DNA of 64,000 nt from Gracilariopsis chorda (taxonomy: Eukaryota; Rhodophyta; Florideophyceae; Gracilariales; Gracilariaceae): contig NBIV01000251.1 of assembly GCA_003194525.1 (NCBI GenBank), positions 1 to 64,000 of the forward strand, given 5' to 3'. The position numbers and the translations under genes are program-made. Shown in pieces: positions 5,386 to 64,000 of the stretch. Every line of letters begins with the position of its first letter. Within the stretch, counting starts at the first letter, position 1. The notes under the pieces are model-generated. The model did no database searches. It saw only the letters and a list, made by a program, of their open reading frames with translations, and was not told the origin of the DNA.

Positions 5386-7251
5386 CTAATGACGACCCTC
5401 TAAAAAGTCTACAGCTTCTTGTAGAACAGGGTTTTTGATGCTCACTGGCATTGGATAGAAATCCTGCGCATTTCGAGGCGTCTCGTTTTCACTATGCAGC
5501 AATAACACATCATCAGATGTTCTGACACGCAAAAGTCCAACATAGACCTGACCCGGCGGAAAAAGGTTTGTTCGAAAGTCAATTATCATTTTCTTCAGCG
5601 TTTGTCCTTCTGCTTTATGCACAGTTGCTGCAAATGCCAATCTGATGGAGAACTGTCGACGTTTGATTTTCACACCTGCAAACTCGAAAACAAAGTCAAT
5701 GCGGTGCAGTAAAAAGCTTTGCTGAATTTCCCCATGTTCATCAATGACCGAAAGTCGAATCACTCTGCGAGAAATGCTGGTAACGATAAAAATCTTTCCA
5801 TTGAGCAAGTGCGGATGAAGTACAATTCGAATCACCATAACAGGAACACCCAATTTCAGTTTCAAATGGTGGTGCGGGACTCCAGTTGGAGCGTAATTAT
5901 ACGTCAGTTCAGGTCCAATGATACTATTTGTGTGAAAGTTTTCACCGGTTGGCCCTCGGTTGGGAACGATCGTGGTTGCAGACTTCAAGTCAAACATCCT
6001 TCCTGGAAAGTACTCCAATGCGTTTTGGTTATGTTCCTCCACTAATTGGTTTGTTGGCGCAGCAATCAATCGGTTGAGCTTGACATCTCCTTTCTCCCGT
6101 GTTGTAAACCATTTCCAAAGCAACTTGTATGCTTCGTGTACATGTGACGTAGACATAAGCGGAAGCCTTGCTGATGCTGGAAACGTCCCACGACCAAGAC
6201 TGAGCAAACCTTTTGCAAGAACTGGATCATCTTGTTGACGAACCTGTTCTGTAAGGCGAAGAACCTTGACTCTTCTGTCCCAAAGCTCGCAAGAGTACCA
6301 TGGAAGCTCCCGTAGGAGACTCACTGGGATAAAACGAATTGTTCCATCCCTTTCGGACACTGTTCTTGTTCTTGGAACGACTGGAAGCAGTTGCATATAA
6401 TCGCCTGCCATAACTACGACCATGCCTCCAAAGTATTTCGTAGATTATCTTAAGTCCTTCAGTACAGTGTTCACAATCTCGAAGAGCATTTTTGGGCACA
6501 TTGAAGCTTCATCAATTACCAGCAAAATAGTCTTCCGTACTAGTTCTGCTCTCTGTGATCGTGGTCCGTACTTGGAAAGTCTCCGATGCTCTCTACTCTG
6601 CGAATCTTTGTTGTCATCAACTCCCAATCCAAGAAAACTATGCAAAATTCTTCCGCCTTCATATAGGGCAGCAGCAATACCTGTTGTGGCTGTCATCTGC
6701 ACCAATTAGCCTTCGTGCTCAACAATATCTCTCAGCAAAGATAGGAGATAGATCTTCCCTGTCCCCGCTCGTCCTTGTAAGAAGAAAACGCTTCCGTGTG
6801 TGTTGCGTCTTCCAGACTCTCCCATTCTATCTCGGTATTGTATTTCTTTCATTATTTTGTCAAAAACTTGCTTCTGGCCTTCTTTGAGATCCTCATATCG
6901 CTCTTTTAACCTTCGCCTGGACCTCGAAGAAGAGTTGCGACGTACTTCAGCTTGTTGCTCTGCTAATTGCAGTTCGCGCTCTCTGAGATGAAGTTGTGAT
7001 ACAGTATGATGAAAGAACGGATCTTTTCTGATAAGCCGACCGCCATGTCTGTCCAAAATCTCAATGGTTCTTCGAAGTAGTTCTTCTCTTCTTTGTGCTC
7101 TGTTTCCCTCGGTTATATCTGCAGTTAGAGCTCGTTCGTGCTTTTCATTCACAGTTTTAGGATTTATCCCTTGTTGAAAGGAAGTGACGACCAAGTAACG
7201 CAGCTCAGCAGGAGTAGCATGGTATCCTACTGCCTCATCAAAAGCCGTTTC
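5386..7251 (-). pseudogene. Helitron RepHel, PIF1-family helicase part, broken by in-frame TAA codons
   Basis: Continues the Rep frame without any shift. It is interrupted by TAA at 7252-7254, 6706-6708 and 6445-6447, and ends at a TAG (5386-5388). PIF1 motifs are visible: Walker A-like GRAGTGKIYLL, TATTGIAA, Walker B LLVIDEAS, GDYMQLLPV, and the C-terminal HKAEGQTL and VYVGLLRVR blocks. Two core residues are changed: the Walker A Thr after GK is Ile (ATC, from ACC by C to T), and the usual Ser in the ALSR motif is Leu (TTG, compatible with TCG). The helicase is therefore unlikely to work. The last TAA sits at a position that is usually Gln in Helitron helicases, as I remember the family. Confidence 0.88.
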
Positions 7252-10197
7252 TTACTCGTCACCATGGATATATAGTCCACGGGCTACTGCCGCTTCTCTA
7301 TAAGTTGAGTAGAATTCGCTCCCAACACGTTTCGGATCATCAAAGGAGCTGAATGCAGAGTTCATGAGCAATATTCGAAGAGCGAATAGTTCGGGATTTG
7401 CGGGAGAAGCAAATCTAATTCGAGTCACAGTTCGATCATTTTCGGATCGCGGCACTACGTACATTCGTGGACTTCCTCCATCGCGAGTGGAGTCATATTC
7501 TGGTACAGAGCAGGGTAGCTTATCGTATACACGTACAGTCTTGTAGTATGTCATGTAGTCCAATTCCATGTACCGGGAGGGTCTTCTGAAATATCTTTCC
7601 AGCAGGGAAGACTTCAGACGTCTAGGCAGTCTTACGTTTCGAATCAAAACCTGTCGCTCTCCACGGAGATGTATGTCAAGTTCCTGTACAGTTGGATTGA
7701 TGCGAACATGCCTGAACTCAAAGAGGTTCCATGCAGCTTCAACGGCGCCCACCACTCTCGCTCTCATGTACGCCCTGATCTCATTTTGAAGCATGTCCCT
7801 CTGTGCACTTGATTGGGTTTCCGCTCGATTTGATACAACCAAATCCTGTTCTTTGGCACTCTTGAAAGCATAATTCATCAAGTATGCTACGGCGCTGCCA
7901 CTTTGGGTTCTTTCAACATTGATGTGAGCCTTGTACTTCATTGCGAGATCTGGATTGTACGGAACAACTTTCAAATCTTCTGTCCTTCTTCTTCGGTAGG
8001 TCACTCGATTTGTGTACTCATTTATCGTTGTTTCAGCCACAATTTCTTGTCGATCATACCCAAATCTGCACCTCCCGTCAGAGGTACGACCATGGCAATA
8101 TGGAGAGTGTCTGTGCATATTGAATTTCTTCACCAACTTTCGGAGTTCCTGGTCCTCAGTCGAGTCACCCCGAGGCAGTTCGGCTTTGATCAAAGTGTCA
8201 ATGATCTCAGGATCTTCAATTACGCCCCCCTCCAACCAAAGAAGAATGTGATGATGTGGAGTATTTCTCTCCTGGAACTCAAGTTTGGCGGCAATCCCAA
8301 TGCATTTCAAGCCAAAGAGCTCTTCTGAATTATTCTGTAGATCCTTCATGATTGAATTTGCATACTGATTGTACACTCTTGCAATAAGATCTGGCCTATC
8401 AAAAGGACGGCATCTGTCTCCCTGTGGAGAAAATGCTCCGGTGTTTTCGTTGTCCATACTAAGCCTCTTCATCTCTTCCCGCCATACGTTCATTGTGACT
8501 GTGACGAAAAGCGTCGGGGAGCCCAGTCTAGCTACCATTGCTTGCACATCCAGTCGTTTTTGTCTCCAGTACGCCGGAGAGTTTTTGTGATTACCGGGAA
8601 GGAAGAGTTTACCGGGAGGGCCAAGTTCATCTGTTCCGGTATGGGTTCCAGCCTGCAGCTCCCGTTCTTCAACCATTCTCATCTGTTCTGTTTCCAAGTA
8701 ACGAAGTCGCAAGTCTTCAATGTTTGTGCTAGTACGAAGCATCCATTGCTGAAGAAGAGTACCAGAGTTCAGCAGCACATTATCGGTGTAGAGTCTTCGT
8801 TTAGAGTGTTCTGCCCATGTTAGGCTCCTTTCGTCTCGGTTGTTCGCATCCCTCGATGAAATATATGTTGCTGTATCATAAGGGGCATGAATCTCACCGT
8901 AAGGGTAGAGAAGTGGAAAAGCTCCCTTCTCAGCTTCCATTGAATCAGGATTCAAACGCTTGTACTTGACAACTCGACGTCGAAGATTTCCGGTTGACAT
9001 GTGATGGGATTCTCTTCCGCCTACGAGCTGGGCAACTGGGGCTTCCGACCTGAACAGTCCACTTGGCTCTAAGACGAAAGCTCTCATTGCAAGAGGTCGG
9101 CCTTGGCTGTCTTCTGGTAACGGTCCTGCACCAGAGCTCACCTCGATTCGGGCTTCATGGGCACCTTGATAATTCCGTACAACTATTCCTTCCTGAATAG
9201 CGTCTGCAGAGATGTCCAGAGTAGACTCGTCCGCGTTTGATCTCCTGCGAACACTTTCGTCTGGTCTGAACAAATTTCTATATCTTTGTCGGACAATATC
9301 TGGTCTTGGTTGCATGAGATCGTACAACTTTGGGACCAAGTATCGAATATTCGGGTTAGACACCATTCTTTTCGTGAAAGAAGAAGAATAATCCCGTGAA
9401 TTAAGACTGAGAGGACCTTCCGACCACAAATATGTGTAGCGCACGTCCTGGCCTGGAACAGAAAGAGACACATTGCCTTGAAGTCGAAAAAATGACGGAC
9501 CTCCACCCCGAACGTACTTTATATCCATGAATGTGACAACGGTGGCATATAACACATTTAGGTGTTTTGATAGCGTTTGAAAAGAACGCAAGCGATATAT
9601 GTCTTCGAGTTGCGAATTGATATGCACTCGTCTGAAAGAAACTCCAAGCGATCTGGAACTTTTATATCCACAGCATGTTCCTTCGGTCTCTGCACCAAGC
9701 AGAACTGCGCCACAATATTTGCACATACGAATACGAAGCACCCACCCCGAATCTTTGAGAGGACACCGAGGTGCTCGATGGCCATTTGCACGGCGCGTCC
9801 CACAACACGCTGGAAGTGTGCCAGTGACTGGATGGTACTCCGGATATGAAGAGCTTGGACGTGCGAGGCCTTGACGAATATTTTCTGCCCTTGCATCCCA
9901 GACATATTCTGCTCCATAGCGAATGCCTTGGCAAGGTCTCCCACCGAACCGCTTAATCGTCCTATCTCGTTCCTGTTGGATACCGGAAGAATGAGAGGAG
10001 TTCAAGTATATCTCTTCAGGGTTATGAGGTTCCGTAACATTTTGAGGAAGCTCGGTTCTAGTTCCTAAGTCCACCTGCGCAAGCTCATCGGATACGTCTC
10101 GTTGATGCACGGGCTGTATATTCTCTCTTGGCCGACGGCCTGCTCCTGACCGGCAAACACCACGTCGTGATGGGGGTCGACGCGAAGAAGAACTCAT
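7252..10197 (-). CDS. Helitron RepHel protein, N-terminal Rep (HUH endonuclease) part
   Basis: 981 codons from an ATG at 10197. The central and C-terminal part matches the Helitron-like N domain. It carries the HUH motif PHHHILLWLE at about residues 647-656, with the two metal-binding histidines. About 130 residues on, AYLMNYAFK provides the Rep tyrosines (Y-x4-Y). A Cys-containing segment (residues 150-175, CKYCGAVLLGAETEGTCC) may bind zinc. Rep nicks and joins single-stranded DNA during rolling-circle transposition. The frame is closed by a TAA at 7252-7254, but the same frame continues straight into the helicase, so this is the first part of one longer RepHel protein. Confidence 0.9.
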   Translation of the reverse strand: MSSSSRRPPSRRGVCRSGAGRRPRENIQPVHQRDVSDELAQVDLGTRTELPQNVTEPHNPEEIYLNSSHSSGIQQERDRTIKRFGGRPCQGIRYGAEYVWDARAENIRQGLARPSSSYPEYHPVTGTLPACCGTRRANGHRAPRCPLKDSGWVLRIRMCKYCGAVLLGAETEGTCCGYKSSRSLGVSFRRVHINSQLEDIYRLRSFQTLSKHLNVLYATVVTFMDIKYVRGGGPSFFRLQGNVSLSVPGQDVRYTYLWSEGPLSLNSRDYSSSFTKRMVSNPNIRYLVPKLYDLMQPRPDIVRQRYRNLFRPDESVRRRSNADESTLDISADAIQEGIVVRNYQGAHEARIEVSSGAGPLPEDSQGRPLAMRAFVLEPSGLFRSEAPVAQLVGGRESHHMSTGNLRRRVVKYKRLNPDSMEAEKGAFPLLYPYGEIHAPYDTATYISSRDANNRDERSLTWAEHSKRRLYTDNVLLNSGTLLQQWMLRTSTNIEDLRLRYLETEQMRMVEERELQAGTHTGTDELGPPGKLFLPGNHKNSPAYWRQKRLDVQAMVARLGSPTLFVTVTMNVWREEMKRLSMDNENTGAFSPQGDRCRPFDRPDLIARVYNQYANSIMKDLQNNSEELFGLKCIGIAAKLEFQERNTPHHHILLWLEGGVIEDPEIIDTLIKAELPRGDSTEDQELRKLVKKFNMHRHSPYCHGRTSDGRCRFGYDRQEIVAETTINEYTNRVTYRRRRTEDLKVVPYNPDLAMKYKAHINVERTQSGSAVAYLMNYAFKSAKEQDLVVSNRAETQSSAQRDMLQNEIRAYMRARVVGAVEAAWNLFEFRHVRINPTVQELDIHLRGERQVLIRNVRLPRRLKSSLLERYFRRPSRYMELDYMTYYKTVRVYDKLPCSVPEYDSTRDGGSPRMYVVPRSENDRTVTRIRFASPANPELFALRILLMNSAFSSFDDPKRVGSEFYSTYREAAVARGLYIHGDE

Positions 10198-19086: not shown

Positions 19087-19559
19087 TGCGCGCCACAACA
19101 ACGACCGCTCCGCGAAGTTGTTGTTGGAGACGCCGTGCGGCCGCATCCCACACGCACCCGTGTTGCAGAGTCCCTCGCCACGCAGCACACGTGTACACGC
19201 GGACAGCAATAAGTACACGTCACGGAAATTTACAGTTGGGGAATTGCTGACAGGTCGCTAGTGTCAGCGCTTTACGGCGCACTGGCGCTGCGCCGCGCCG
19301 AGTTGGGTGCGGCGGAACAGCCGCAGAGCACTCGTGTGCGCGCTGCTCCTGTGCCTCACGTAGACATACGAACGCCGCGGCCGCGTCCGCTTCCACCTTG
19401 CAAGTTGCAACTCCCTCCTACCAACGGTACCTCCGCACTGCTCCGCGCACACTCCGTCTCCGCAGCCTCTCGCGCCTATCTGACCCTTCTTCCTCAGACT
19501 GATGCGCCTGCTTTTTTTCTCAGCTCTGTAGACTTTCCTCACACCCCCTAACTCTGGCC
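19087..19559. promoter_or_regulatory. Shared promoter region SRP68 / BAR-J gene
   Basis: 473 bp between two start codons facing apart. It is GC-rich in the middle (GGCGCACTGGCGCTGCGCC near 19277), with a pyrimidine-rich leader before 19560. No clear TATA box. Confidence 0.5.
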
Positions 19560-22082
19560 ATGAACATGGATGGCAGCGCCTTTGTAAAAGGCTTCAAGAA
19601 CATTCGAAACGGAGTCATTCGTACCGCTGAGCGTGCTAGCGTCGAGGTGCGAAAGGCTGTCGGTCTCTCTAACCTCTCTCTGCCAGAGTCTTTTCCCGAA
19701 TACGACCACCTCGCCGTCGAGTTCAGAACCCAAACGAAAAACCTCGAAACCCTACACCACGACGCCTTGTCCGCATACGAGTCCATTCAGCGCTCCACCG
19801 GCACGGCATACACCTTAGCTGCCAAGCTTCGTGACTCGTTGTCATCCAACTCCACTGGAGCACCCTACCTTGCTGCAGATGCGCTCGTCAACGTCCAGGC
19901 AGCCATTGTCGACGATGTCTTGCCGCGCGTGGAACGACGCGTCAAGAAGAGAGTTATAGACCCTACTAAAACCGAACTCAACAAAGCAAGGCAAGTGAAT
20001 ATCCATATGGAACAGAGAAAACGTTGTTATCTTGATGCTGCACGCTACCATGAGCGCATTTCCGATGCGTCCGCTTCTCCGGACGATGTGCGAAAGGCGG
20101 AGGATAAAATGGCCGAACTTATTCAGCGAACCAACGAACTCCTCTCTATTATGTCGGAGGCTGTTAAACGTCGCGCTGCACTTGTCGAATCTATCGTCGC
20201 CGAGACCATTGAATTTCAACGTCGTTTTTATGTCGATTCTGCGCGTTCTATGGAACGCGCTATTGACGCAATTGGATCCACTAAACTTGCGGCTATGCGT
20301 GCCAATGCTGAAGACGGCACTGAACGTCGAAACACTACGGGTATCAATACCCAGCAGAATGAACCTCCCGTGCATGCGCCTCAACCGCCACCGCCTAGAC
20401 GTGCCACTACAATGCCGGTGCATGATACTAGTAGCATTTGGAATGAACTTGACGATGATGACGATGACGATCCTGAACCAGATGAAGATGCTTATGAACC
20501 GCGCCCGAAATCCAACATCTATACTGATAACATCTTCGATGATCCGCCTGCCGCGCAACCAGAAGTTGAAAATCCACGACGCTCAGATGCTGGATCTGCA
20601 TCTGATTCCTCCACCGGAATTGCAAATCCGTTCGGAAGAGAGCGAACGTCAACGTCTTACCCAGCCAATGGAATCGGAAAGCGCGAAGCTACCTATCCCA
20701 CCGCTGCCGTAGGCCAGAAGGAATCTGTAAGCAGTTATCCAACAGGTGGTTCTCGATCAAGAGACAAGTATCCCAGCGCCCGCTCTCGTACCGCCCCTAA
20801 ACCTCCTCCGGGTCCAACTTCGTCCTTCGCTCCGTCCTCCAGTAGAGAAAGTACCACTGAAAAGTCGAGAACGAGCAGACGAGCAGAACCGGAACCCGAT
20901 TTGTTTGGGTTTGACACTCCCACTCCGCCGAAACCGGCAAGGAGTAGGCGATCGCCATCTCCTCCGGCTGTATCCAGTACAGAGGATCTTTTGGACCTGG
21001 GTGGAACAACGTCTAGCTCAACTACTCAGCGTCCCATGGGTAGAAGTTCATCGGCTTCAGCAATGGAGGGTGATCTATTAGGCGATTTGGGCGCCACTCC
21101 CCAACCTCGACCGCGCTCCACTCAATCGCGAAGTATGAAGTCGCCATCTCCTCAGCCGTCGTTCTCTGCACCGTCTATGAGCTCCCAAACGAAAGGCTCC
21201 CCGAATCCGTCCACATCCTCGACATTTTCACACGCCGAGGAACTGCGACGGCGTGAGCAACTTCACCAACAACATGAAGATGAAATCAAAGCGAGAGCGG
21301 ATGAAAAGCTTGCTGCAGTGCGAGAAAGAGAGAAGGCTCACGCTAAAGAGCGTGAAGAAAAGGATAACGCCCGATCCGCCGCGGAGAGAAAAATCAACGG
21401 GTGGACAGGTAATGGCACTCGTCGTGGAAATCTTCGTGCTTTACTTGCCTCTTTGGACACGGTTTTGTACCCAACAGCAACTTGGAAGCCTGTGTCTATG
21501 GATATTCTAAAGGAGAACTCAAAGGTCAAGGTCAACTATCACAAAGCCATTCTGCAGGTGCATCCAGATAAGATTAATTCGAAGAATCTTCCTCCAGACC
21601 AACTCGTCCTTGCGGAACTCGTATTTGACGAGCTTAAAAATGGGTACGAAGTTTGGAGTGCGGAGTGCGAAGGTAGACCGCCACCACCAGGTTCTGTTGG
21701 TCCCAAGGGAGCTCAGGCTCAGACTTCAGGGTTTGGTGGAATGAGTGGTATGTCGGGAATGTTCAACAACATGGGTAGAGCAGGCATGGGAAGTATGGGA
21801 AGAGGTGGAATGGGCGGCATGGGCATGGGAGGAATGGGCATGAGTGGTATGGGAGGAAGAGGTATGGGAGGAATGGGAATGGGCGGAATGAGCATGGGGG
21901 GTATGGGAATGGGCGGTAGAGGAATGAGCGGAATGGGAGGGCGAGGTATGGGCGGCATGGGTGGTATGGGTGGTATGGGTGGAATGGGCGGTATGGGTAA
22001 CATGGGAGGAATGGGAAGACGTGGTACCAAGATGAGCGGTATGGCTCAAGGGTACGGACGAGGAATGAACTCCAAGAGATAA
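19560..22082 (+). CDS. BAR domain + auxilin-type J-domain protein
   Basis: 840 residues. Residues 1-240 resemble an amphiphysin/Rvs-type BAR domain: FPEYDHLAVEFRTQTKNLE, then VIDPTKTELNKA, a basic RKRCYLDAARYHERI stretch, then a KAEDKMAELIQ helix and RRFYVDSARSME. Residues 240-600 are disordered and Ser/Pro-rich. They hold endocytic short motifs: DLFGFD (about 447), LLDLG (about 475, clathrin-box-like) and LLGDLG (about 507). Residues 615-705 form an auxilin-type J domain with WKPVSMD and the HPD triad (668-670). The tail (about 720-835) is Gly/Met-rich. BAR bends membrane; auxilin J domains recruit Hsc70 to strip clathrin. Both functions are inferred from the domains. Confidence 0.85.
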   Translation: MNMDGSAFVKGFKNIRNGVIRTAERASVEVRKAVGLSNLSLPESFPEYDHLAVEFRTQTKNLETLHHDALSAYESIQRSTGTAYTLAAKLRDSLSSNSTGAPYLAADALVNVQAAIVDDVLPRVERRVKKRVIDPTKTELNKARQVNIHMEQRKRCYLDAARYHERISDASASPDDVRKAEDKMAELIQRTNELLSIMSEAVKRRAALVESIVAETIEFQRRFYVDSARSMERAIDAIGSTKLAAMRANAEDGTERRNTTGINTQQNEPPVHAPQPPPPRRATTMPVHDTSSIWNELDDDDDDDPEPDEDAYEPRPKSNIYTDNIFDDPPAAQPEVENPRRSDAGSASDSSTGIANPFGRERTSTSYPANGIGKREATYPTAAVGQKESVSSYPTGGSRSRDKYPSARSRTAPKPPPGPTSSFAPSSSRESTTEKSRTSRRAEPEPDLFGFDTPTPPKPARSRRSPSPPAVSSTEDLLDLGGTTSSSTTQRPMGRSSSASAMEGDLLGDLGATPQPRPRSTQSRSMKSPSPQPSFSAPSMSSQTKGSPNPSTSSTFSHAEELRRREQLHQQHEDEIKARADEKLAAVREREKAHAKEREEKDNARSAAERKINGWTGNGTRRGNLRALLASLDTVLYPTATWKPVSMDILKENSKVKVNYHKAILQVHPDKINSKNLPPDQLVLAELVFDELKNGYEVWSAECEGRPPPPGSVGPKGAQAQTSGFGGMSGMSGMFNNMGRAGMGSMGRGGMGGMGMGGMGMSGMGGRGMGGMGMGGMSMGGMGMGGRGMSGMGGRGMGGMGGMGGMGGMGGMGNMGGMGRRGTKMSGMAQGYGRGMNSKR
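21719..22030 (+). repeat. Gly-Met-rich coding repeat (GGMG / GMGGM)
   Basis: About 100 codons built from degenerate GGNATGGGN units at the end of the BAR-J gene. Similar low-complexity Gly/Met tails occur in some chaperone co-factors; here it follows the J domain. Its role is unknown. Confidence 0.9.
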
Positions 22083-47768: not shown

Positions 47769-50384
47769 CTAAACATCGATCTTAGCAGATCGCTTTGCTG
47801 TCCCGACGTGACAGCTGTTCACCTTCGCCGCAAAGCGGAGAGAGCACAGTGATTCGTTGAAGCTTTCTGGGGCGTGAGAAAGATTCACAAACATGAGCGC
47901 TTTCGAGTCACCCCCGAGCGAATCTTGTAGTAAGTGAGTTAGCTTAGAATTGCGATAGGGAATGTGCTTTTCTTTCGTCGCCAACGCCGAGATTACATCA
48001 CCTAGTGCAGAAAGACTCTTGTTGATGTGTCTGGTTTCGCGTAATCGTTCGCCTTCGGCCTTGCTCTTTTCTAGTCTTTCTGAACCGGCTAGGTCAATGA
48101 GATTCAGAAGCCCATCTCGACACTCCTTCGTTCCATCGTTCTCTCCATGCACATACAGGCGGAAAACTGAATGTGATCGCGAACTTCTTTCGTTTGATCG
48201 TGTAGCAGCAGTGGCACGGTTTTTCATTGATTGACTGATCAGCTTTTGAATATGTGCTTCGTCAATCACCGTCTCGACGGTAAGATCCGTCACAGTACTC
48301 AGCTTCTTGTCTTGGCTGAAGATAATACGGCGGTTTTCTTCTTTGGATTTCCCGTTAGAGTTTGCACTCGAATCAAGCAACAAGTCCCTGATTGACTCGT
48401 TGTAGATCTCAAGAAACGAAGCTTTGAGGGTAAACTCCCAGCCGTCCTTCTCCATGCTTCTTGCCGTCTCGAATACTTGTCGAATAGATCTCGGGATCAT
48501 TCCAAGGTTCGCGTCATTGCTGTTCCTTTCTCCGAGCATAGTGTAAGTCTTCCCAGATCCTGTTTGTCCATAAGCGAAAACACAGACTCTATAGCCATCG
48601 ATAGCACTCTGCACAAGCTGAGAGATCTCCTCGAATACATTGTCCTGAGAACAGGAAGGATCAAACACACGATCAAACTTGAAAGGATAACTTTGCACGC
48701 CACCCGGTCTTGTTCGCTCGTCTGCCGGTGGCTTCGCCACAACGCCTTGTCCCTTCTCATTATAAACAAACATTGGGTGATCAGTGGCGCGCTGTTCTTT
48801 CGGCAACGGAGGTCGAATCCGACAGAACACGCGAATATTGCCCTTGAGTTCCTGGATCGTGTTACGAAGTCGCCTTTTCTCAGCTGCATCTTCTCTGGCG
48901 AGGCTTTCAAGCTTTTCGATTTCCCGTTTCTGTACCTCACCGAACTCAATCAGTCTTTGCACCTCAGTCCTCGAATTAGCCAAATCCTTGTGCAACGCAT
49001 CTAGTTTGAGATCTTGCGTCATTTTATCAGACACTAGTGTCGAAACCTTTCTCTCCTGCAGGGCTACGGACTCCTTAAAGTTTTCGAGTTCTTGGATCTT
49101 GGCATTCATTATCGCTTCAAGAGCCGCATTTGCCTTCCGTAAGCTGTCGCGTTCCTCTTCGAGAGATTGTATTTGGGGCGTTACATCGTTCTTAAAAGCG
49201 CTGAAATTATTATCTAGCTCCTTCCTCGCGTCCTCACAGGTCGCTTTTTGTCGTTCAAGCTCGACCCGGGTCGCCTCAAGCTCATCGATCTTTTCCTGCG
49301 AGACCGCAATACGCTTGTTCAACGACTTCTCCACCTGCACGCGATCCGCTTCAATTTCGTCTTTTTCCCGTCTCATACGGCGAAGAGCTGTTTCGATGCT
49401 AGACTTTTCTTCCTCTGCAACCTCAGATCGTCGCAATGCATCTTTCAGCTTTGTGGTAGTAGTGTTCAAATCTGATTCAAGCATAGTCTGTCTGCCCTTA
49501 GCTTCAGTGTCAGCGGACAACTTCTGCTCGCGTAAGTCGTTCACGATCTGCTCAGCTTTCTTGAGCGCATTTTGGGCTTGCTCAAGTTCTTCACTTGAAG
49601 CGTTATTAGAAGCCTGAGTCTCGCGGACAGTTTTCAAATCTTGCTCGAGAGCCTGCACGTTGTCCTCGAGCTCCATGACACGTTTCCTTTCAACTTGGAG
49701 TTCACTCTGAACGTCCTTGATTTGTGCCTGTGCAAATGTGAGCTCAGTTTCGCATTTCGCTTTCTCTTCTGCAAGCTCTGTGCATTGTCTAGCGGTGCCA
49801 GTGTGTGCTTGCTCCAGCTGCGAAATGGTCTGGAGAAGCCTTTCACTGGTCTCCTTTCCTATTGAAAAGTCATTCTTGGTGTCTTTTAGGGCGGTAACGG
49901 ACTCCTGAACGCTTTCGAGCATGGACTGAATCTGTGTCATTGACGCAAGATCAGGCGAAACCTGCGCTTCCTTGCGAGCTTTAGCCAATCCTCTGGAAGG
50001 AACGCGAGATGCGGCAGTCCTATTCAACGTTAAGGTGTCCCTCCGGGATGCATCAGTGGCGGATCTGGAGGTGGTGCGAGTGCCCTGGCGCGCTTTGGCA
50101 GGCTGCGGAAAGCTGCGTTTTGCAGTTGCTGCCAAGCGCTTGTTGACTGGTTGCGGATCGTTCGACTGCACAGTTGAGCGGGTTCGAGGAATGGTCTGGC
50201 GGCGGGAAGACGGTGGTTGGGGAAGGGCTGAACTGTTAGAAGTGGATTTCGGATGAGGCTTCTTGATCATGCTCTTCGTCTGCGATACGCCTAATTTGAG
50301 GGCGCGTTGATTCTGGGAAACGGTGAGGTTGTCCTTTGCACCGGATGTGATTTCCTTCAGTGGAGCTCGAACTTTGGAATCCAT
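47769..50384 (-). CDS. Kinesin-14 (C-terminal motor, minus-end directed type)
   Basis: 871 residues from ATG 50384. The N-terminal 165 residues are basic and Ser/Thr-rich, with an RAPLKEI start that resembles a destruction box; such tails bind microtubules. Residues about 170-530 are a long coiled coil for dimerisation. The neck KGNIRVFCRIRP leads into a C-terminal motor (about 535-860) with AYGQTGSGKTYTM (Walker A near 604), NERSSRSHSVF (switch I) and LIDLAGSER (switch II). Motor-last order and the neck sequence place it in kinesin-14 (HSET/Ncd/Kar3-like), which focuses spindle poles. Confidence 0.95.
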   Translation of the reverse strand: MDSKVRAPLKEITSGAKDNLTVSQNQRALKLGVSQTKSMIKKPHPKSTSNSSALPQPPSSRRQTIPRTRSTVQSNDPQPVNKRLAATAKRSFPQPAKARQGTRTTSRSATDASRRDTLTLNRTAASRVPSRGLAKARKEAQVSPDLASMTQIQSMLESVQESVTALKDTKNDFSIGKETSERLLQTISQLEQAHTGTARQCTELAEEKAKCETELTFAQAQIKDVQSELQVERKRVMELEDNVQALEQDLKTVRETQASNNASSEELEQAQNALKKAEQIVNDLREQKLSADTEAKGRQTMLESDLNTTTTKLKDALRRSEVAEEEKSSIETALRRMRREKDEIEADRVQVEKSLNKRIAVSQEKIDELEATRVELERQKATCEDARKELDNNFSAFKNDVTPQIQSLEEERDSLRKANAALEAIMNAKIQELENFKESVALQERKVSTLVSDKMTQDLKLDALHKDLANSRTEVQRLIEFGEVQKREIEKLESLAREDAAEKRRLRNTIQELKGNIRVFCRIRPPLPKEQRATDHPMFVYNEKGQGVVAKPPADERTRPGGVQSYPFKFDRVFDPSCSQDNVFEEISQLVQSAIDGYRVCVFAYGQTGSGKTYTMLGERNSNDANLGMIPRSIRQVFETARSMEKDGWEFTLKASFLEIYNESIRDLLLDSSANSNGKSKEENRRIIFSQDKKLSTVTDLTVETVIDEAHIQKLISQSMKNRATAATRSNERSSRSHSVFRLYVHGENDGTKECRDGLLNLIDLAGSERLEKSKAEGERLRETRHINKSLSALGDVISALATKEKHIPYRNSKLTHLLQDSLGGDSKALMFVNLSHAPESFNESLCSLRFAAKVNSCHVGTAKRSAKIDV

Positions 50385-52336
50385 GTTGTCGGTAGTATGG
50401 AAAACTGTCCGTGATGGAGAGAAGCGGCTGTAGAGTATGTGGAACAACTGAGGGTTATGCGGGAAGAAAAAGTTAGGCTTCGTTCAATGTCGCGGTCAAA
50501 GTTTGGGAAGCAGCTAGCTATGCTATGCTTGCATGGCCGACGAGAAGTGAAGCGAAAGGTGGATGAGGCAGTGGCGTTCCGACAACGCTGGGTTGGAGCA
50601 GGAATTTCAGCCGTTGCGTTTCACGCAGCGGATGTCGTGAACGGATACATTGCAAAACGCACAGGGAGAGGGCGTGCTGCATCAACGGTAAAGATGCTGG
50701 TGCATCGCACAGCAGCTCCAACGCCAATGCAGCAGAAGTGGTTTTTGAAACGCAAGTTTGAATTTGAAAATTATTGATTTGACTTTCGAAGAGTGATGTG
50801 TGACATTTGGGGTTGTGACTGTGAAACGGTAACGGTCGCGTTGCCTTTAAACGAGGCTCCTTTCTTTTCTCTGCGATCGTTGCACCTGAGATTCTCAGGT
50901 GCGACGAAGCTGAGCCACTGGCTACCGCAATTATGCATTGCACCCAAGTGTGGGAGCTCTGTGTCGAACGAAGATCTGCTGCTCTTCTGCCGCACTTGTG
51001 GATTATCACCATCGCGAAAGTCTTTCTACAAGCGGAAAGTGTGATCCTCAAAGCCAGCATGTTCGCGCGGGAACCTTCAAACACAATGGTGAATGGCACA
51101 CCACTTCTTCCAGATTCGGACAATGAAACTGCAGTGCAGCCGTGCAGTGCAATACCTTGCCACCGTTTGTTGTCTGTATGCATGCGAAGCTTGGCTTCGG
51201 AGAAACGGGTCAACGGCTAGGATTGCTACCTCAGAATAGCTGTCCACTTGTGCAGTGCTGTCTACATTGCTAATTGGACAACTATTTGCACCCCTCGTTT
51301 CGTTACTTGAGTGCATTTCAATCACTCCTTTGCAGTCTTCACGCATTGCGCCTGTTATCCAACAATGTAGAAAGAGAAACATCATAAGAGCTCCCTCCGA
51401 TTAAACATAAGAACGCCGACGATGGGAATCATCAAGTATAAGCCACAAACCACAAGCGCTTGGAGTAGCAGCAGCAGTGACGAAATGGCCGCATGTAGTG
51501 TCGGCATTCTTGCGGAGAGAACAGTTCTTCGATAACAGCTCCTACCACGCTTTCGAAATTAGTAACGTGCGATCGTAGATATACATACATACGTGAACCA
51601 CAACCAACCCAACCAGCAAGCACAATTCTCATAAAGGCCACTTATCACTCCTCACGCACTCAATCACTTCTACAAATTAGTTTAATGGCATATCACGCAC
51701 AAGATACGATGCCGGTTGCACGGTGCCTCGCGCACGTTCCATATCAACAGCAGTACTATCCGACCACCAGCCTCCTATTTCCTTCACATCTACCCCGTTG
51801 CCACACGTTACTAGACAACCCTTTCCTATTCTAACTCCAACAAATATTCTCACAGACTCCAAGCAAGTTTTCCCGAATGCTAAGGGTCGGCAAAACCACA
51901 CGTATCGGTGTCTATGTACCTGCACAGATGAATCATTGCGACATTCCGTGCTGCTCCGTTCTGCTTAACGACACCGTGAATCCTCTTTCGAAAAACGGAG
52001 CGTTTCCATGAACCTGTGTAAACGAAAAGAAAAGAAAAACAGGTCGTTCCCTATCACAGGAAACCCATAGTTAGCAAGTCGAAAAGAAGAAGCCCGAGTG
52101 TATAAGATCAGCGCAGCCGCGCATATCAGCTCCACTATATAGCACACGGAGATGAAACTGAGCACGTCAAATACTATGTGTCTGTAACAAGTCTACTTCA
52201 TTTCAAAAGACAAGAGCTCAGCCGATACGAGTGTTTTCTGGCCTTGAATCCACGTATGAAACAGTGAGTGCCCCGCCACCACAAAAGAAAACTTGCAGAA
52301 CAAAACGCATGCGCGGGTAGATATGTTACAAATGAT
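50385..52336. other. Intergenic, nothing certain
   Basis: 1.95 kb between the kinesin promoter and the 3' end of the deubiquitinase gene. It holds a perfect 9-bp hairpin, GCACCTGAG-ATT-CTCAGGTGC (50882-50902). A basic frame at 50457-50777 and one at 51677-51925 lack any recognisable family, and I leave them out as genes. Confidence 0.45.
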
Positions 52337-62545: not shown

Positions 62546-64000
62546 CTACGGGTACTGGGATTGATGCCTCTTGTAGGGATGAGATTGAGCCGAGTTAGTG
62601 TTTCCTGGGTACGACGGAGTTGCATAATGTGACACGCCCTGCGAATACGGATTGGACGTTGACGGGTAGAACCCTTGATGAGAGCCCATTCCGGACTGAT
62701 ATTGTTTCCTAAGATCGCCCGCTTCTGAGCGACGTGCGGCGCTGAAATCGCTTATCTCTTGCAGCAGCTTGGCCAACAAGTCCTGCTCCTTGGCGTAGAA
62801 ACTTGCGCCGTGCTCAAGGTGATCGGAAATCTCCTTGAACTTCACGGCGGCCGCTTGAACGCGATACACTTCCTTCATGCGCTCCTCGACTTGCATGCGT
62901 ACCTTGTCCGCTTGTGGTCGTTGCTGCAATCTGCATATCATGTCGGTCAGAGCATCACATACGTGCAACATATCTGCGCGCAGCGTACGGGCATCATCTT
63001 TCAGGAACCCGTATTCATCCTGTATCACCTCCTGCACGCGATCGACGTTGAGTTCCTCTTCAGGAATTGCCAGCAGTATCTTGTGAGGCTCCTCGAGAGC
63101 TTTTTTCGTCTCAATGGCCTCAACCACATCATCCTTTCGCGAGAGCAGAACCTTGCTCGTGCCATGTTGAGCTTTCATTTTAGTGGCAATGGATTCCACG
63201 CGTGCAGAAAGATTGGCACTTTCAGTGGCATACACCGATGTGTCCGGCGCATCAAGCCCCTTCATCTGAATCTGTTCAACGTCCGCAATCGACTGTCCAT
63301 GCTTCTCAATCAACTTATTCACAATGGCGTCTGCGTTGGCAGCCTGTCTCAAATCGGCTTGCATCTTGGCCAACTTGGTACGATAAGCATGAGTTAGTTC
63401 TGCGCTACTCGCCCTCTGCACGGCAGGATACGAAGCGCGAAGTCGGCGATCTTCCTCATCTTCCGCGGCAAGCAACGATTCAATCTTCTGAACCTGTGTT
63501 CTGACATCACTCGCCATGTTCATGACTTGCACTTGCAACTCTCGAATGGTTCGCATTCCACCTTTGTTCTGCGTATTCTTCACAAGATCAATGGCGGTCT
63601 GGTCCGATTTCCGAGATTCGTCAGACACGGAACTGGTGTGCTGGGCCAAGGTGAGCACATCCGCACGAGACGTCTCAATAGCGTCTTCACTCCGTTTCAT
63701 CAAATGTCTCAAATCGGCCGACGAGGTATTGAGCGCGGCCACAACGCTCGCAAGTTGATGCGCAACCATATCGGAATACATGGAAATAAAGCCAGAGCGT
63801 TCTCCAGACACGGGTTCAAGAAAGTCTGCAAAAGCACGTAAACGCTGATCAACTGTTTGTTGCGCAATTATAGTATCCACATCAGCCGGTTTAACAGACT
63901 GACGACCCTGAATAGCAGTGATACTAGCAGCCGGACTCTGAAAGTAAATCTTTCTATTCTCCTCTTCCGCGTTCTCCTCACGTTCGACAATGTCCTTGTA
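62546..64000 (-). CDS. ALIX / Bro1-like ESCRT-associated protein, C-terminal part (runs off right edge)
   Basis: The frame is open to the window edge; 484 codons are visible. The right end (YKDIVEREENAEEENRKIYF, then SPAASITAIQGRQSVKP) matches the stretch that joins the Bro1 domain to the V domain. The visible remainder is the long helical V domain (ALNTSSADLRHLMKRSED, LEEPHKILLAIPEEELN, ISDFSAARRSEAGDLRKQ). A short Ser/Tyr/Pro-rich tail follows (SNPYSQGVSHY). The family links ESCRT-III and cargo during multivesicular body sorting and cytokinesis. The Bro1 domain and start codon lie beyond 64000. Confidence 0.88.
   Translation of the reverse strand, partial: YKDIVEREENAEEENRKIYFQSPAASITAIQGRQSVKPADVDTIIAQQTVDQRLRAFADFLEPVSGERSGFISMYSDMVAHQLASVVAALNTSSADLRHLMKRSEDAIETSRADVLTLAQHTSSVSDESRKSDQTAIDLVKNTQNKGGMRTIRELQVQVMNMASDVRTQVQKIESLLAAEDEEDRRLRASYPAVQRASSAELTHAYRTKLAKMQADLRQAANADAIVNKLIEKHGQSIADVEQIQMKGLDAPDTSVYATESANLSARVESIATKMKAQHGTSKVLLSRKDDVVEAIETKKALEEPHKILLAIPEEELNVDRVQEVIQDEYGFLKDDARTLRADMLHVCDALTDMICRLQQRPQADKVRMQVEERMKEVYRVQAAAVKFKEISDHLEHGASFYAKEQDLLAKLLQEISDFSAARRSEAGDLRKQYQSGMGSHQGFYPSTSNPYSQGVSHYATPSYPGNTNSAQSHPYKRHQSQYP

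What the first reader, a model, noticed from the sequence alone, without database searches (positions are those of the whole stretch)
19560..22082. BAR domain fused to an auxilin-type J domain in one protein
The sequence shows an amphiphysin-like BAR region (residues 1-240), a disordered linker with clathrin-box-like LLDLG and DLF-type motifs, an auxilin-style J domain with HPD, then a Gly/Met tail, all in one uninterrupted frame. In animals, yeast and plants, curvature sensing by BAR proteins and Hsc70 recruitment by auxilin are, to my knowledge, on separate proteins. A fusion would place the uncoating cofactor on curved necks directly and could time clathrin removal to scission. This is the best candidate here for an undescribed mechanism.
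Basis: partly seen in the sequence, partly recalled or inferred. Interest (0 to 1): 0.75.

Follow-up and report, generated by a model that had tools for sequence, protein, structure and literature searches.

The report
BAR domain fused to auxilin J domain
One gene of an apparently intron-poor eukaryote seems to join a membrane-bending BAR domain to an auxilin-type clathrin-uncoating cofactor, two parts that plants keep on separate proteins that bind each other, so it looks like a covalent version of a known partnership and still needs RNA and functional proof.

Summary
Window 19560-22082 (+) is one 840-codon frame; its frame scores best of the three forward frames in 14 of 14 windows. Residues ~608-703 are an auxilin-type J domain with HPD at 668 (3ag7 E 2.3e-12; auxilin 1n4c 2.5e-10). 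Residues ~46-255 look like a BAR three-helix domain. Pfam BAR is weak: E 9e-5 to 8e-4 in 7 of 11 stretches, always below the curated cut-off, absent for the whole protein. Single-sequence AlphaFold2 models list almost only BAR-superfamily structures (49 of 50 and 50 of 50 rows shown).

Most likely: a membrane-targeted clathrin-uncoating co-chaperone. There is precedent: Arabidopsis BAR proteins (SH3Ps) are reported to recruit AUXILIN-LIKE1 (PMC13176895 passages). The fusion puts that pair on one chain. Ten literature searches listed no such fusion, but no eukaryotic sequence collection was available, so its spread is unknown. Organism unidentified. New variant of a known kind.

The parts
19560..22082 (+). 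Whole gene: 840-aa protein, BAR-type domain + disordered linker + helix + auxilin-type J domain + Gly/Met tail
   Evidence: Single ORF; upstream in-frame stop at 19500; coding bias
19572..19661 (+). Residues 5-34: possible N-terminal amphipathic helix (N-BAR H0-like), net charge +5
   Evidence: Helix 5-34 and 6-33 in the two models, pLDDT mostly under 50; maximum hydrophobic moment 0.63, reached by 241 of 5000 shuffles. Suggestive only
19695..20324 (+). Residues 46-255: BAR-type three-helix domain
   Evidence: Helices 46-97, 101-167, 174-251; Foldseek rows shown: 49 of 50 and 50 of 50 BAR superfamily; Pfam BAR 47-232, E 9.2e-5 to 8.2e-4 in 7 of 11 stretches, below cut-off
20325..21230 (+). Residues 256-557: disordered Ser/Pro/Thr-rich linker (52 S, 46 P, 30 T of 302)
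   Evidence: No helix or strand in 256-557; block-mean pLDDT 31-48 over residues 261-550; composition
20625..20633 (+). NPF motif, residue 356 (EH-domain type, recalled)
   Evidence: DLF/DPF/NPF class: 2 observed, shuffle mean 0.13, P 0.005
20901..20915 (+). LFGFD, residues 448-452: match to the clathrin-box pattern (recalled), overlaps DLF 447
   Evidence: shuffle mean 0.011, P 0.011
20985..20993 (+). DLL motif, residue 476 (within DLLDLGG)
   Evidence: two DLL observed, 0 of 2000 shuffles reach two
21072..21080 (+). DLL motif, residue 505 (within DLLGDLG)
21231..21407 (+). Residues 558-616: long charged helix leading into the J domain
   Evidence: Helix 558-616, block-mean pLDDT 55-90
21381..21668 (+). 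Residues 608-703: auxilin-type J domain
   Evidence: phmmer to 3ag7 E 2.3e-12 and auxilin 1n4c 2.5e-10; 24 invariant columns in a three-row alignment; Pfam DnaJ 17.7 to 20.7 bits against 27.8, below cut-off
21561..21569 (+). HPD tripeptide, residues 668-670
21669..22079 (+). Residues 704-840: Gly/Met-rich tail, net charge +12 (27 GM dipeptides in 701-840)
   Evidence: tandem repeats with 9- to 69-base periods

Best explanation
The gene encodes a membrane-targeted clathrin-uncoating co-chaperone. The N-terminal BAR-type domain dimerises and binds curved membrane; the disordered linker holds clathrin through LFGFD and DLL motifs and perhaps EH proteins through NPF; the auxilin-type J domain recruits Hsc70 and triggers its ATPase so that it strips clathrin. 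Shown: one frame, the J domain by sequence, the motifs as patterns. Predicted: the BAR fold. Inferred: dimerisation, membrane and clathrin binding, uncoating, and use in clathrin-mediated endocytosis. It would do on one chain what Arabidopsis SH3P (BAR-SH3) and AUXILIN-LIKE proteins do as a pair, with BAR in the place of the PTEN-like domain that anchors animal auxilin to membrane.
For: Auxilin-type J domain E 2.3e-12, with HPD and 24 invariant columns against two solved domains. BAR fold: 49 of 50 and 50 of 50 rows shown are BAR superfamily; FAM92A BAR TM(target) 0.78 and 0.77, rmsd 2.7 and 2.8. Pfam BAR in 7 of 11 stretches and in none of the reversed sequence and 5 shuffles. Clathrin-type motifs enriched over shuffles. 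One coding frame. BAR proteins are reported to recruit or bind auxilin-like proteins in plants (passages).
Against: Pfam BAR never reaches its curated cut-off, is missed in 4 of 11 stretches including the whole protein, and the same region also has a weak match to Rep3_C (E 0.0014-0.0088, residues 127-155). No PDB BAR chain matches by sequence. The models are single-sequence, best of five, of middling confidence (mean pLDDT 67.0, pTM 0.58; 48.8 and 0.32 for the whole protein); many fold matches superpose poorly (the top row has rmsd 14.3) and only 3 per search reach E <= 0.001. The J domain is poorly modelled. No relative was found to show conservation. In Arabidopsis only about 5% of events recruit AUXILIN-LIKE1 and its deletion has no observable phenotype (PMC13176895). 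No RNA or functional data.
Confidence: 0.72

Rival explanations
1. Same two domains, but the protein works on endosomes or the trans-Golgi network rather than at plasma-membrane necks, as the J protein RME-8 does together with the SNX-BAR protein SNX-1.
For: SNX1-SNX5 structures are among the listed fold matches, one chain with TM(target) 0.82, rmsd 3.0. RME-8 sequences bind the SNX-1 BAR domain and the RME-8 J domain lowers that binding (passages of PMC9642905).
Against: The J domain is of auxilin type and the linker has clathrin-type motifs; no PX domain in the Pfam scan, though that scan also missed BAR. These do not exclude endosomal clathrin.
Confidence: 0.13
2. The N-terminal region is a helical dimerisation or membrane-binding domain unrelated to BAR, and the protein is an ordinary auxilin-like protein with a helical extension.
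For: Pfam BAR is below cut-off and boundary-sensitive, missed in 4 of 11 stretches; single-sequence models of long helices may resemble BAR bundles (inference); no sequence match to PDB BAR chains.
Against: The Pfam alignment spans 27-226 of 234 profile positions, and no BAR hit came from the reversed sequence or 5 shuffles, whose best hit to any family was E 0.012; the fold matches shown are almost purely BAR.
Confidence: 0.11
3. Two adjacent genes, or an assembly or gene-model error, look like one protein.
For: No transcript data could be examined.
Against: Unbroken frame with the best forward coding score in 14 of 14 windows, through the linker; the neighbouring ORFs (SRP68 divergent, lipase convergent) leave gaps of 341 and 618 bases.
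Confidence: 0.04

Closest known systems
Arabidopsis AUXILIN-LIKE / JAC1 J proteins (3ag7; that it is Arabidopsis JAC1 is recalled)
   Same: Auxilin-type J domain; closest solved J domain by sequence (E 2.3e-12)
   Different: No BAR domain in those proteins as far as I know (recalled); here a BAR-type domain is fused and a Gly/Met tail follows J
Arabidopsis SH3P1-3 (BAR-SH3), reported to recruit AUXILIN-LIKE1
   Same: A BAR protein placed with an auxilin at clathrin sites (passages)
   Different: There two proteins that bind; here one chain, and no SH3 match was found
Animal auxilin (DNAJC6) and GAK
   Same: J domain (1n4c E 2.5e-10); membrane targeting by another domain of the same chain, PTEN-like (table in PMC9798423)
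   Different: No PTEN-like or kinase match here; a BAR-type domain takes the N-terminal place
FAM92A, endophilin and amphiphysin BAR domains
   Same: Predicted three-helix fold (TM(target) 0.78 for 9uhd, 0.72 for 1x04, 0.76 for 1uru)
   Different: None carries a J domain (recalled); 12-13% identity in these structural alignments
Galdieria sulphuraria BAR protein (3caz)
   Same: A red-algal BAR protein of known structure, rank 50 (TM(target) 0.57, rmsd 5.5)
   Different: 10% identity; whether its gene also encodes a J domain was not examined

Membership tests
Auxilin family J proteins | J domain with HPD | tested here: met
   HPD at 668; E 2.3e-12 to 3ag7
Auxilin family J proteins | Auxilin-type segment around the J helices (KI..W, N.R.LL, WKPV) | tested here: met
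   Invariant in the three-row alignment
Auxilin family J proteins | Clathrin-binding motifs N-terminal to J | tested here: met
   LFGFD and two DLL by pattern; binding itself untested
Auxilin family J proteins | Stimulates Hsc70-driven uncoating | not testable with these tools
   Biochemical assay needed
Animal auxilin/GAK subfamily | PTEN-like domain | tested here: not met
   No such Pfam match at E <= 5
BAR superfamily | Recognised by the Pfam BAR profile | tested here: inconclusive
   E 9.2e-5 to 8.2e-4 in 7 of 11 stretches, but 19.5-22.6 bits against the curated 28.5, which is not reached
BAR superfamily | Three-helix BAR fold | tested here: met
   By single-sequence prediction only: 49 of 50 and 50 of 50 rows shown
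BAR superfamily | Crescent-shaped dimer that binds membrane | not testable with these tools
   Dimer not modelled
N-BAR subgroup | N-terminal amphipathic helix | tested here: inconclusive
   Moment 0.63, 241 of 5000 shuffles reach it; low pLDDT
SH3P / endophilin / amphiphysin type | SH3 domain after BAR | tested here: not met
   No SH3 match in the Pfam scan at E <= 5

The most novel reading that the evidence does not exclude
A lineage without SH3P-type adaptors has fused curvature sensing and Hsc70 recruitment into a single conserved auxilin, so that membrane curvature directly gates clathrin removal with no recruitment step.
Probability: 0.3. Interest if true: 0.7.

Novelty: new variant of a known kind. 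Interest (0 to 1): 0.5.

Why it matters
How BAR proteins and auxilin cooperate to remove clathrin is unsettled, in plants above all (PMC13176895 passages). If real, a natural fusion would be genetic evidence, independent of binding assays, that the two act at the same place, and it would give a single protein on which curvature sensing and uncoating can be tested together.

Tried and rejected
Relatives: the search for related loci with the whole protein (viral contigs, prokaryote genomes), the J region, the BAR region (viral only) and a three-row J alignment (viral only) confirmed none; not surprising for a eukaryotic gene in collections of viruses and prokaryotes. No genome is held for this window, so paralogues and the organism could not be checked. 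Sequence search of the BAR region in PDB gave only chance matches (chymase, ADAMTS13; E 0.62 or worse). The viral structure library gave no match at E <= 0.001; one listed row, rank 27, is a BAR domain-containing protein of a Sylvanvirus. NCBIfam gave a DjlA J-domain similarity (E 1.2e-5, 25.1 bits against 162), a TolA match (0.0016) and weaker ones, all under the cut-offs. tRNA scan: none. The bacterial promoter scan found none and is uninformative for a eukaryote. A two-gene reading was rejected on coding bias. PxxP motifs of SH3-ligand type in the linker are not clearly enriched (4 observed, shuffle mean 1.5, P 0.06), nor is DxF (P 0.40). The shuffled controls gave weak hits to other families (best E 0.012, Phage_fiber_2).

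Full report
The observation. Window 19560-22082 (+) holds a single 840-codon frame; the nearest in-frame stop upstream starts at 19500. Codon usage from 11 neighbouring ORFs scores its frame above the other two forward frames in 14 of 14 60-codon windows; a reverse frame is slightly higher in two of them, 421-480 and 781-840. The gene lies between an SRP68 ORF on the minus strand (341 bases from its start) and a class-3 lipase ORF on the minus strand (618 bases from its end). I see no sign of two genes, but there is no transcript evidence.

J domain. phmmer against PDB gives six distinct sequences at E <= 1: 3ag7 (2.3e-12), 1n4c (2.5e-10), 1xi5, 1nz6, 2qwn and 2qwo; five are named auxilin, and 3ag7, named a putative uncharacterized protein, is Arabidopsis JAC1 by recall. 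A three-row alignment has 24 invariant columns, among them WKPV and HPDK. Pfam DnaJ is below its cut-off (17.7, 20.7 and 20.3 bits against 27.8). The J region is poorly modelled, so this domain rests on sequence.

BAR domain. Pfam BAR matches residues 47-232 (48-232 in one stretch) with E 9.2e-5 to 8.2e-4 in 7 of 11 stretches given (257, 245, 251, 267, 300, 197 and 497 aa) and is not listed in 4 (233, 280 and 218 aa, and the whole protein), always under the curated 28.5 bits. The same region also matches Rep3_C weakly (E 0.0014-0.0088) and others more weakly. The reversed sequence gives no Pfam match at E <= 1; five shuffles give no BAR match and three weak matches to other families, best E 0.012. 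AlphaFold2 without an alignment gives helices 46-97, 101-167 and 174-251 (best of five models, mean pLDDT 67.0, pTM 0.58). Foldseek against PDB shows BAR-superfamily entries in 49 of 50 rows for the whole-protein model (the exception is a HAMP-Tsr fusion, rank 43) and in 50 of 50 for the domain model; rows titled ESCPE-1, SNX1-SNX5, GAS7, Pacsin2, syndapin, AMPH-1 and GEM interacting protein are counted as BAR family from recall where the title does not say so. 829 and 801 matches had E <= 10; only 50 are shown and only three in each search have E <= 0.001. Some top rows superpose poorly (rmsd over 10). The good superpositions include FAM92A (TM(target) 0.78, rmsd 2.7) and Drosophila amphiphysin (0.76, 3.5; 0.66, 5.4) and a chain of SNX1-SNX5 (0.82, 3.0). 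A BAR protein of the red alga Galdieria is rank 50. Sequence search in PDB found no BAR chain. I take the BAR assignment as likely, not proven.

Linker and tail. The 302-residue linker is Ser/Pro/Thr-rich and unstructured in the model. It holds a match to the clathrin-box pattern, LFGFD (1.1% of shuffles), two DLL motifs (0 of 2000 shuffles), and NPF plus DLF (0.5%); a relaxed pattern that takes LLDLG gives 0.45%. Two of the six classes tested, PxxP and DxF, are not clearly enriched. Motif meanings are recalled. The tail is Gly/Met-rich with net charge +12 and is repetitive at the DNA level; its role is unknown and it could be low-complexity drift.

How it most likely works. The BAR-type domain places the protein on curved membrane, the linker holds clathrin, and the J domain brings Hsc70 to strip it. 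Each step after the sequence and fold evidence is inference. The strongest outside support is that the same pair is reported to work together as separate proteins: a review says SH3P BAR proteins could recruit AUXILIN-LIKE1 to endocytic sites, similar to endophilin in mammals (PMC13176895, passages); another says SH3P1-3 promote uncoating through the auxilin-like factor (PMC12457278, passages); [quoted passage not shown] SH3Ps colocalise with it (PMC11112126, passages). Against a central role in plants, only about 5% of events recruit AUXILIN-LIKE1 and its deletion had no observable phenotype (PMC13176895). A second J-BAR pair is RME-8 and SNX-1 on endosomes (PMC9642905, passages), the main functional rival.

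Organism. Not identified. Several conserved genes on single ORFs, 51.5% GC and Helitron-type genes are compatible with a red alga, but this is inference. If it is one, it is of interest that a survey found no significant SH3P homologue in the Rhodophyta section of GenBank (PMC6888108, passages), so a fused BAR-auxilin could stand in for the missing adaptor; this is speculation.

Novelty. Ten literature searches showed no BAR-auxilin fusion in the titles and abstract starts listed; five of them listed only part of what they found (25 of 80, 20 of 567, 15 of 54, 10 of 61, 15 of 379). I read passages of seven papers; that was only a reference-list entry. Most subscription papers are not held and no eukaryotic protein collection could be searched. 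I file it as a new variant of a known kind: an auxilin with a BAR-type domain as membrane anchor.

Noticed in passing
5386-10197, minus strand: Helitron-like pieces: a Helitron_like_N protein (7252-10197) and a Pif1-type helicase fragment (5386-6423).
   Followed up: no
47769-50447, minus strand: Kinesin with its motor at the C-terminal end (residues 543-878 of 892), a kinesin-14-like arrangement (the name is recalled).
   Followed up: no
62546-63880, minus strand: Protein with an ALIX V-shaped domain; no Bro1 domain matched in this ORF, which may continue beyond the window end.
   Followed up: no
21770-22016: The Gly/Met tail is tandem-repetitive DNA with several overlapping periods (9-69 bases), a possible site of length variation.
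   Followed up: partly
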